Shown: positions 22,772 to 23,206 of the stretch, in pieces
Numbering within the stretch: position 1 is the first letter of the stretch
How the letters are laid out: the number at the start of each line of letters is the position of its first letter
Source: Halieaceae bacterium
GTDB taxonomy: Bacteria; Pseudomonadota; Gammaproteobacteria; Pseudomonadales; Halieaceae
Direction of reading: 5' to 3'
Length of the DNA: 39,509 bases
NCBI GenBank assembly: GCA_902631395.1
Contig: CACOYM010000017.1
Coordinates: 1-39,509, forward strand
The notes under the pieces: model-generated
Told to the model about the DNA's origin: nothing
Databases searched by the model: none
What the model saw: only the letters and a program-made list of their open reading frames with translations
Made by a program: the position numbers and the translations under genes

Positions 22772-23206
22772 ATGGACCGACTATTCCGCTTGTTAATTGT
22801 CGCTACGGTATTAGCGTTGCCCCTAGACGCAGTAGCCATGCAAATTTTCGTCAAGACGCTCACCGGCAAGACAATTACACTTGAAGTCGAGCCATCAGAC
22901 ACCATCGATAACGTAAAAACTAAAATTCAAGATAAAGAGGGTATTCCGCCGGACCAGCAACGTTTGATATTTGCGGGTAAGCAGTTAGAGGACGGCCGGA
23001 CTCTCTCCGACTACAACATACAAAAAGAGGCCACTTTACATCTAGTGCTGCGGTTGCCTGAAGCAGCTCCAGTTAATTCGTTGTCGCTGCGGGATGTTTA
23101 TGTATTAGCGATGTTACTTGCCCTGTTAGGGTCACTTAGGGCCAGACGCAAAAATGTACCTAAGTGTGCGGGGGTTGCGCCTTCGGAGACTAATCCGGTA
23201 GCTTGA
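22772..23206 (+). CDS. Exported near-perfect ubiquitin with C-terminal sorting/membrane tail
   Basis: The protein has 144 residues in three parts. Residues 1-22 are a bacterial signal peptide ending AVA. Residues 23-98 are ubiquitin, matching the eukaryotic protein at 70 of its first 73 positions (changes E24D, A28T and S65A relative to human; Asp24 is the form found in yeast and plants). All seven lysines and the Leu8-Ile44-Val70 patch are kept, but the RLRGG end reads RLPEA. Residues 99-144 are a tail with VNSLSLRDVYVLAMLLALLG then RARRK, like an IPTL/PEP-CTERM sorting signal. Cleavage after AVA would leave Met1 of ubiquitin exactly. The ATG follows GGGGGGA. Without the GG end it cannot be conjugated by the standard route, and no E1, E2 or protease partner is nearby. 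Confidence 0.93.
   Translation: MDRLFRLLIVATVLALPLDAVAMQIFVKTLTGKTITLEVEPSDTIDNVKTKIQDKEGIPPDQQRLIFAGKQLEDGRTLSDYNIQKEATLHLVLRLPEAAPVNSLSLRDVYVLAMLLALLGSLRARRKNVPKCAGVAPSETNPVA

What the first reader, a model, noticed from the sequence alone, without database searches (positions are those of the whole stretch)
22772..23206. A bacterial gene encoding near-identical eukaryotic ubiquitin fused to an export signal and a sorting tail
The central 76 residues match ubiquitin at 70 of the first 73 positions, keep all seven lysines and the Leu8/Ile44/Val70 surface, and have no intron. Yet the gene has a bacterial ribosome site, promoter and terminator, and lies between bacterial genes. The signal peptide would deliver it out of the cytoplasm, and the tail resembles IPTL/PEP-CTERM signals for surface anchoring. 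An exported, surface-displayed ubiquitin would be a new use of the fold, perhaps a mimic aimed at a eukaryotic host, grazer or alga. Secreted ubiquitin is known in Bacteroides fragilis, but I know of no CTERM-tailed form.
Basis: partly seen in the sequence, partly recalled or inferred. Interest (0 to 1): 0.95.

Follow-up and report, generated by a model that had tools for sequence, protein, structure and literature searches.

The report
Bacterial envelope-anchored ubiquitin mimic
A bacterium, probably marine, carries an intact gene whose protein core matches human ubiquitin at 70 of 73 positions but lacks the end needed to tag other proteins; it is predicted to be exported and tethered to the cell envelope, is one of dozens of such bacterial genes found here, and would likely act as a mimic towards eukaryotic cells.

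Summary
Window 22772-23206 (+) encodes 144 residues: a predicted signal peptide, ubiquitin residues 1-73 (70 of 73 identical to human; all seven lysines and L8/I44/V70 kept), then a linker, a 22-residue helix and arginines in place of RGG. It is no chimera: one metagenome protein is 93% identical over all 144 residues, and 7 of 57 genomes of the genus carry the gene or a remnant. Between the window and genome G036, 70 of 72 ubiquitin residues are identical while synonymous sites are saturated, so selection holds the protein. Among loci fetched I counted 83 distinct ubiquitins behind a likely signal peptide, 19 from strain-named records; 9 of 83 keep GG, and many lead into surface anchors (autotransporter barrels, S-layer domains, IPTL-CTERM). 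The known relative is BfUbb, secreted by Bacteroides fragilis. The window's tail matches no curated sorting-signal model, and exosortase H, found in 20 of 57 genomes of the genus, was not found in this one; so surface display is unproven and inner-membrane tethering is the fallback. The target is unknown; I favour a eukaryote-directed mimic.

The parts
22760..22766 (+). Shine-Dalgarno-like GGGGGGA tract
   Evidence: read in the sequence; 5 nt before the ATG
22772..23206 (+). whole gene, 144 aa plus stop
   Evidence: near-identical protein P0122 in another metagenome contig
22772..22837 (+). predicted signal peptide, residues 1-22, ending AVA just before ubiquitin Met1 (signal peptidase I type site by rule; no dedicated predictor run)
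   Evidence: hydrophobicity script; AF2 helix 2-15
22838..23056 (+). ubiquitin residues 1-73 (protein residues 23-95)
23057..23203 (+). tail replacing RGG: linker PEAAPVNSLS, predicted transmembrane helix, RARRK, C-terminal stretch
   Evidence: helix 106-127 in the model; no CTERM model matched
23087..23152 (+). predicted membrane-spanning helix, protein residues 106-127

Best explanation
The gene encodes a ubiquitin that lacks the RGG end and so would not be conjugated, that is predicted to be exported and held in the cell envelope by a C-terminal membrane helix, and that likely works as a mimic engaging ubiquitin-recognising proteins of eukaryotic cells such as grazers or hosts. Step 1 (predicted): a Sec signal peptide ending AVA is cut so that the mature protein begins at native Met1. 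Step 2 (shown by sequence): residues 74-76 are PEA, not RGG, so E1 activation by the usual route and cleavage at LRLRGG are not expected. Step 3 (predicted): helix 106-127 followed by arginines anchors the protein with ubiquitin on the outer side of the inner membrane; in relatives whose genomes hold exosortase H the tail may be processed and the protein moved to the surface. Step 4 (shown): the ubiquitin part is held by strong purifying selection. Step 5 (inferred): because the part kept is the eukaryotic ubiquitin surface itself, the partner is probably a protein that already recognises eukaryotic ubiquitin.
For: Real gene: near-identical P0122 from another contig, 134 of 144 residues identical, 9 of the 10 differences in the signal peptide and none in ubiquitin; hits in 7 of 57 genus genomes and 12 of 140 family genomes. 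Selection: window against L003, 70 of 72 residues identical with pS 0.98 and pN 0.012, while the signal peptide shares 10 and the tail 12 positions; in the five Halieaceae pairs with dS below 1, dN/dS is 0.10-0.18. Layout repeated: 83 distinct ubiquitins behind a hydrophobic leader, Met at +1 in 82, Ala or Val at -3 in 74, GG kept in 9; of 82 such proteins 20 match Autotransporter, 7 SLH, 4 IPTL-CTERM in Pfam, 4 choice-of-anchor U and 1 T9SS tail in NCBIfam. Window and L003 keep the I44 patch intact. Precedent: BfUbb is exported, starts at Met1, lacks GG, binds human E1 and inhibits ubiquitination in vitro (passages of PMC3352274, PMC5705921).
Against: No binding partner, expression or localisation datum. 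No sorting enzyme found in the window's genome; of the 7 genus genomes with the gene 2 have exosortase H, of the other 50, 18: no association. In the 15 most divergent exported ubiquitins the I44 patch is no better kept than other surface (0.64 against 0.67; core 0.96), so canonical recognition is not needed family-wide. The gene is patchy and decays: G034 copy has two stops, the G000 second copy (L002) and G028 copy are diverged. If the helix simply stays in the inner membrane, ubiquitin faces the periplasm and meets no eukaryote directly.
Confidence: 0.42

Rival explanations
1. An antibacterial ligand: tethered or shed ubiquitin binds an envelope protein of competing bacteria, as BfUbb acts on other B. 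fragilis strains.
For: BfUbb, same layout up to residue 73, is a potent intraspecies toxin (passages of PMC5705921); a ubiquitin lacking GG from oyster is reported bacteriostatic (passage of PMC10892293). Patchy presence within the genus, 7 of 57, suits a competition trait.
Against: Bovine ubiquitin, far closer to the window's protein than BfUbb is, had no activity on BfUbb-sensitive strains. The window protein has a tail helix, while BfUbb is released. No linked immunity gene recognised; the flanks are not shared with relatives in the rows I displayed.
Confidence: 0.22
2. A structural part: ubiquitin serves as a stable N-terminal cap or spacer of envelope proteins, with no ubiquitin-specific partner.
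For: In divergent members the core is kept (0.96) but the I44 patch is not kept above other surface; it is joined to many unrelated C-terminal parts.
Against: In the window's line nearly every residue is kept, including surface, over synonymous saturation; a mere stable fold should tolerate more surface change.
Confidence: 0.2
3. A recently acquired gene on its way to loss, kept by chance.
For: Decayed copies in the genus (L006 with two stops, L002 diverged) and absence from 50 of 57 genomes.
Against: Synonymous saturation against near-complete protein identity with L003, with shared D24, T28 and shared leader end.
Confidence: 0.1
4. Assembly chimera or eukaryotic contamination.
For: Some relatives lie near contig ends (11 of 55 MAG contigs within 600 bp, 5.9 expected); a few of the 80 loci do look eukaryotic (L025, L046).
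Against: Signal peptide and tail in frame with ubiquitin; P0122 on another contig; relatives in 19 strain-named records; GC of the gene 48% and GC3 49%, like its neighbours.
Confidence: 0.02

Closest known systems
BfUbb, secreted ubiquitin of Bacteroides fragilis (PMC3352274, PMC5705921; passages read)
   Same: Bacterial export signal with ubiquitin Met1 at the cleavage point; C-terminal glycines lost; patchy presence among strains.
   Different: BfUbb is 63% identical to human ubiquitin, ends at residue 76 with a cysteine and is released; the window's is 70 of 73 identical and carries a membrane-helix tail.
IPTL-CTERM proteins and exosortase H (TIGR04174, TIGR04177)
   Same: Short tail of the layout proline motif, hydrophobic helix, arginines; relatives L036, L084, L099 carry a ubiquitin followed by IPTL-CTERM over the cut-off; exosortase H with its partner gene occurs in the genus.
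   Different: The window's tail (PVNSLSL...) does not match the model, and its genome shows no exosortase H.
Eukaryotic ubiquitin
   Different: Export leader, no RGG, C-terminal anchor; no conjugation expected.
'Ubiquitin family protein' of Ruminococcus albus 7 plasmid pRUMAL01
   Same: Leader directly followed by ubiquitin; annotated in RefSeq by domain only.
   Different: Longer, other C-terminal part; among other exported proteins.

Membership tests
BfUbb-type secreted ubiquitin | export signal cut exactly before ubiquitin Met1 | tested here: met
   AVA|MQIF by sequence rule and hydrophobicity; cleavage itself not observed
BfUbb-type secreted ubiquitin | no terminal glycine | tested here: met
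   P74 E75 A76
BfUbb-type secreted ubiquitin | protein ends at residue 76 with cysteine | tested here: not met
   46 further residues follow; cysteine end of BfUbb
BfUbb-type secreted ubiquitin | released into medium and toxic to sister strains | not testable with these tools
   needs culture
IPTL-CTERM substrate of exosortase H | TIGR04174 score of 20.5 bits or more | tested here: not met
   no match at E up to 1 for P0001
IPTL-CTERM substrate of exosortase H | exosortase H in the same genome | tested here: inconclusive
   TIGR04178 and an XrtH query find nothing in G000, 88.8% complete; TIGR04178 is over its cut-off in 20 of 57 genus genomes, and the two loci checked (L115, L116) are exosortase H
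PEP-CTERM substrate | TIGR02595 or related model match | tested here: not met
   PF09721 over cut-off in 0 of 57 genus genomes, though that model also misses exosortase H
Eukaryotic conjugating ubiquitin | C-terminal LRLRGG | tested here: not met
   LRLPEA
Eukaryotic conjugating ubiquitin | E2 enzyme in the genome | tested here: inconclusive
   PF00179: 0 of 13 genomes, but the 14 controls were silent too
Ubiquitin fold family PF00240 | score over the gathering cut-off | tested here: met
   109.9 against 25.4 bits

The most novel reading that the evidence does not exclude
Bacteria of many phyla have taken over eukaryotic ubiquitin as a surface ligand: they export it with its native N-terminus free, drop the conjugation tail, and mount it on whatever anchor their envelope offers (autotransporter barrel, S-layer domain, exosortase tail), so as to be read as ubiquitin by the eukaryotes that eat or host them. 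The window's gene is the shortest form, ubiquitin on a bare anchor.
Probability: 0.3. Interest if true: 0.95.

Novelty: new variant of a known kind. Interest (0 to 1): 0.8.

Why it matters
Exported bacterial ubiquitin is known in print, as far as my searches of open papers reach, from B. fragilis (the 2017 paper calls it one of a few bacteria with such a gene). A tethered form under purifying selection in free-living Halieaceae, and the same leader-ubiquitin-anchor layout across many bacteria, would mean that ubiquitin has a second life outside cells as a ligand. It makes the question 'what reads extracellular ubiquitin?' testable in cultured, harmless bacteria such as Pseudohaliea rubra, Cocleimonas flava or Dyella.

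Tried and rejected
Chimera or contamination: rejected. Antibacterial toxin of the BfUbb kind: kept as first rival. Exosortase: PF09721 alone suggested that the genus has none (0 of 57 over cut-off); TIGR04178 then found a short enzyme in 20 of 57 genomes, and the two of these scanned are exosortase H, so my first reading was wrong and the PF09721 negatives (10 of 19 genomes) are weak. Rhombosortase: a rhomboid in G000 scores 49.1 bits, under the cut-off of 84, and the model rings in all 14 controls. E2 search: uninformative, controls silent. Tree of 72 ubiquitin columns (83 exported, 61 from proteins of the first homology search that I labelled eukaryotic without checking each source): not resolved, 94 of 140 inner branches open; labels cluster (27 changes, 46.8 in shuffles, 0 of 500 as low) but starred branches force no more than 3, so one or several transfers cannot be told apart. 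Residue signatures 16/28/57 are mixed in both sets. Phage records: no match at E 1e-5. Plasmids: 3 records. The first homology search is swamped by polyubiquitins: 7964 proteins scored, best 120 listed. Flank comparison: tblastx output was cut by me at 60 rows, which covers L003-L012, L015, L019 and the first row of L105. Bovine or human ubiquitin letters aside, no BfUbb sequence was compared. The 2024 work on the BfUbb target is recalled only; search did not find it in the held library.

Full report

2. The host. The window is a whole 39,509-base contig (C17) of a 2.3 Mb, 60-contig genome, 88.76% complete, 0.3% contamination. A genome of the same genus, G043, has its copy on a 4,656-base contig that equals in length and protein the record L019, titled uncultured Luminiphilus; the family member G173 gives the same protein as Pseudohaliea rubra DSM 19751. 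So the host is very likely a Luminiphilus-like Halieaceae (lineage). An IMES-1 RNA lies 1.2 kb upstream.

3. Not an artefact. A search with the tail alone (residues 91-144) returns one protein of 22 candidates: P0122, 144 aa, 10 member sequences, on a 1,050-base ENA contig. It is 134 of 144 identical; nine differences are in the leader, one in the helix, none in ubiquitin. GC and GC3 of the gene (48.3%, 49.3%) are at the low edge of nine other window frames.

4. Relatives in the genus and family. 7 of 57 genus genomes match: G000; G036 (L003), G025 (L004, start codon unclear) and G043 (L005) with an open frame; G028 (L007) open but diverged; G034 (L006) with two in-frame stops; G050 with its two ends on two contig ends (L010, L012). 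L003, L004, L005 and L007 share a convergent neighbour (471-503 aa where complete; by eye an FAD-dependent oxidoreductase); the window does not share those flanks in the rows shown. G000 has a second, diverged ubiquitin on C1 (L002), 51% identical over residues 2-89, ending LRLRG. Family: 12 of 140 genomes, 5 of 28 genera. Class sample: 2 of 369, one being G000. Relatives' tails read VPALP or VPTLP, then helix and arginines. In G059, G111, G115 and P. rubra a 'choice-of-anchor U' domain sits between ubiquitin and tail: over its cut-off in L008 and L106, 4 of 82.

5. Selection. Window against L003: 70 of 72 ubiquitin residues identical, pN 0.012, pS 0.98, i.e. saturated; leader 10 identical, tail 12 identical. 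Both share D24 and T28. Of the 66 Halieaceae pairs compared, five have dS under 1, with dN/dS 0.10 to 0.18; one of these involves the decayed L006 and one the diverged L007.

6. The wider set. A genome scan by two peptide patterns found 511 stretches, 466 encoding a relative, of which the best 80 were kept. One pattern demands Ala before Met1, so Ala at -1 (78 of 83) is inflated; Ala or Val at -3 (74 of 83) is not in the pattern. Among the loci fetched I counted 83 distinct ubiquitins with a hydrophobic leader (mean Kyte-Doolittle 1.9 or more over 12 residues within 45 upstream), duplicates removed; 12 rows failed that cut, some being giant-virus-like or eukaryote-like, one (L034) cut by a contig end; the start motif also missed a few (L062, L075, L095). 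NCBI names give eleven phyla, one of them archaeal and from a MAG; phyla of MAGs can be misbinned. Nineteen come from records with strain names and no MAG tag, in five phyla (Pseudomonadota, Bacillota, Actinomycetota, Planctomycetota, and Cyanobacteriota through what looks like a single-cell genome). GG is kept in 9 of 83, R74 in 33, all seven lysines in 57, L8/I44/V70 together in 61.

7. What ubiquitin is mounted on. Of 82 proteins scanned (83 less L104, a near copy): 20 Autotransporter, 7 SLH, 5 fn3, 4 IPTL-CTERM, 3 OMP barrel, 2 SdrD-B in Pfam at E up to 0.001; 6 IPTL-CTERM, 4 choice-of-anchor U, 2 LPXTG-family and 1 T9SS tail in NCBIfam at E up to 0.01, not all over cut-offs. Three short ones (L036, L084, L099) pass the IPTL-CTERM cut-off. 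Dyella proteins (L030, L052, L078) end at LRL or LRLRGG with no anchor.

8. Is the window's protein on the surface? Unproven. No CTERM model hit. PF09721: 0 of 57 genus genomes over cut-off, but over it in 9 of 19 chosen genomes, including four of the five family members outside the genus. TIGR04178: over cut-off in 20 of 57 genus genomes, including G025 and G050, not G000, G028, G034, G036 or G043. The two loci scanned are exosortase H, 226 and 206 bits, each beside its partner gene. A direct query finds none in G000; that genome is incomplete. Presence of the ubiquitin gene and the enzyme are not associated (2 of 7; 18 of 50).

9. Mechanism. Shown: sequence, reading frame, selection, layout repeated. 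Predicted: export, cleavage at Met1, membrane helix. Inferred: partner. The near-perfect upkeep of the eukaryotic surface in this line argues for a partner that recognises eukaryotic ubiquitin. Against a family-wide rule: in the 15 most divergent members the I44 patch (grouping recalled) is kept at 0.64, other surface 0.67, core 0.96; in all 83, 0.88, 0.80 and 0.95.

10. Literature. Nine searches of open-licence papers gave BfUbb work and no paper, among the titles and abstracts listed, on anchored bacterial ubiquitin; one search listed 30 of 100 and 15 of 4,048. I read passages, not whole papers, of PMC5705921, PMC3352274, PMC10892293, PMC11354881 and PMC4378268. RefSeq names one such gene only 'ubiquitin family protein'.

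11. Verdict. A real, selected, exported-type ubiquitin; a new variant of the BfUbb kind, with a membrane tail; function open.

Noticed in passing
window 21337-21525 (-): IMES-1 RNA motif (RF02034, 133.5 bits, cut-off 81), a family named from marine environmental sequences, between neighbours of the ubiquitin gene.
   Followed up: no
window 16406-18082 (+): Exported protein with an M35-like lysine-specific metallo-endopeptidase domain (PF14521, 58 bits), 5 kb from the ubiquitin gene.
   Followed up: no
window 18493-19122 (+): Exported 209-aa protein with a tail of the same layout (VPSTPAPALWLLGALLCLLGVAGVSKLRD), also unmatched in NCBIfam.
   Followed up: partly
L002 791-1776: Second, diverged ubiquitin of the same genome (ends LRLRG), 60 bp after a gene for an exported protein with a CTERM-like tail.
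   Followed up: partly
L038 5405-6543: Two different leader-ubiquitin genes in tandem in a rumen Clostridia MAG.
   Followed up: no
loci: Ubiquitin genes lie close to contig ends more often than expected in 55 MAG contigs that I tabulated of the 80 loci: 11 within 600 bp, 5.9 expected, simulated P 0.021; several genomes hold two copies.
   Followed up: partly
L095, L099-L101: Leader-ubiquitin genes on contigs classed as viral in IMG/VR, one ending LRLRGG, three with an IPTL-type tail; whether these contigs are phage was not checked.
   Followed up: no
L115, L116: Exosortase H with its partner gene in Luminiphilus-like genomes is missed by Pfam PF09721 but found by TIGR04178.
   Followed up: yes
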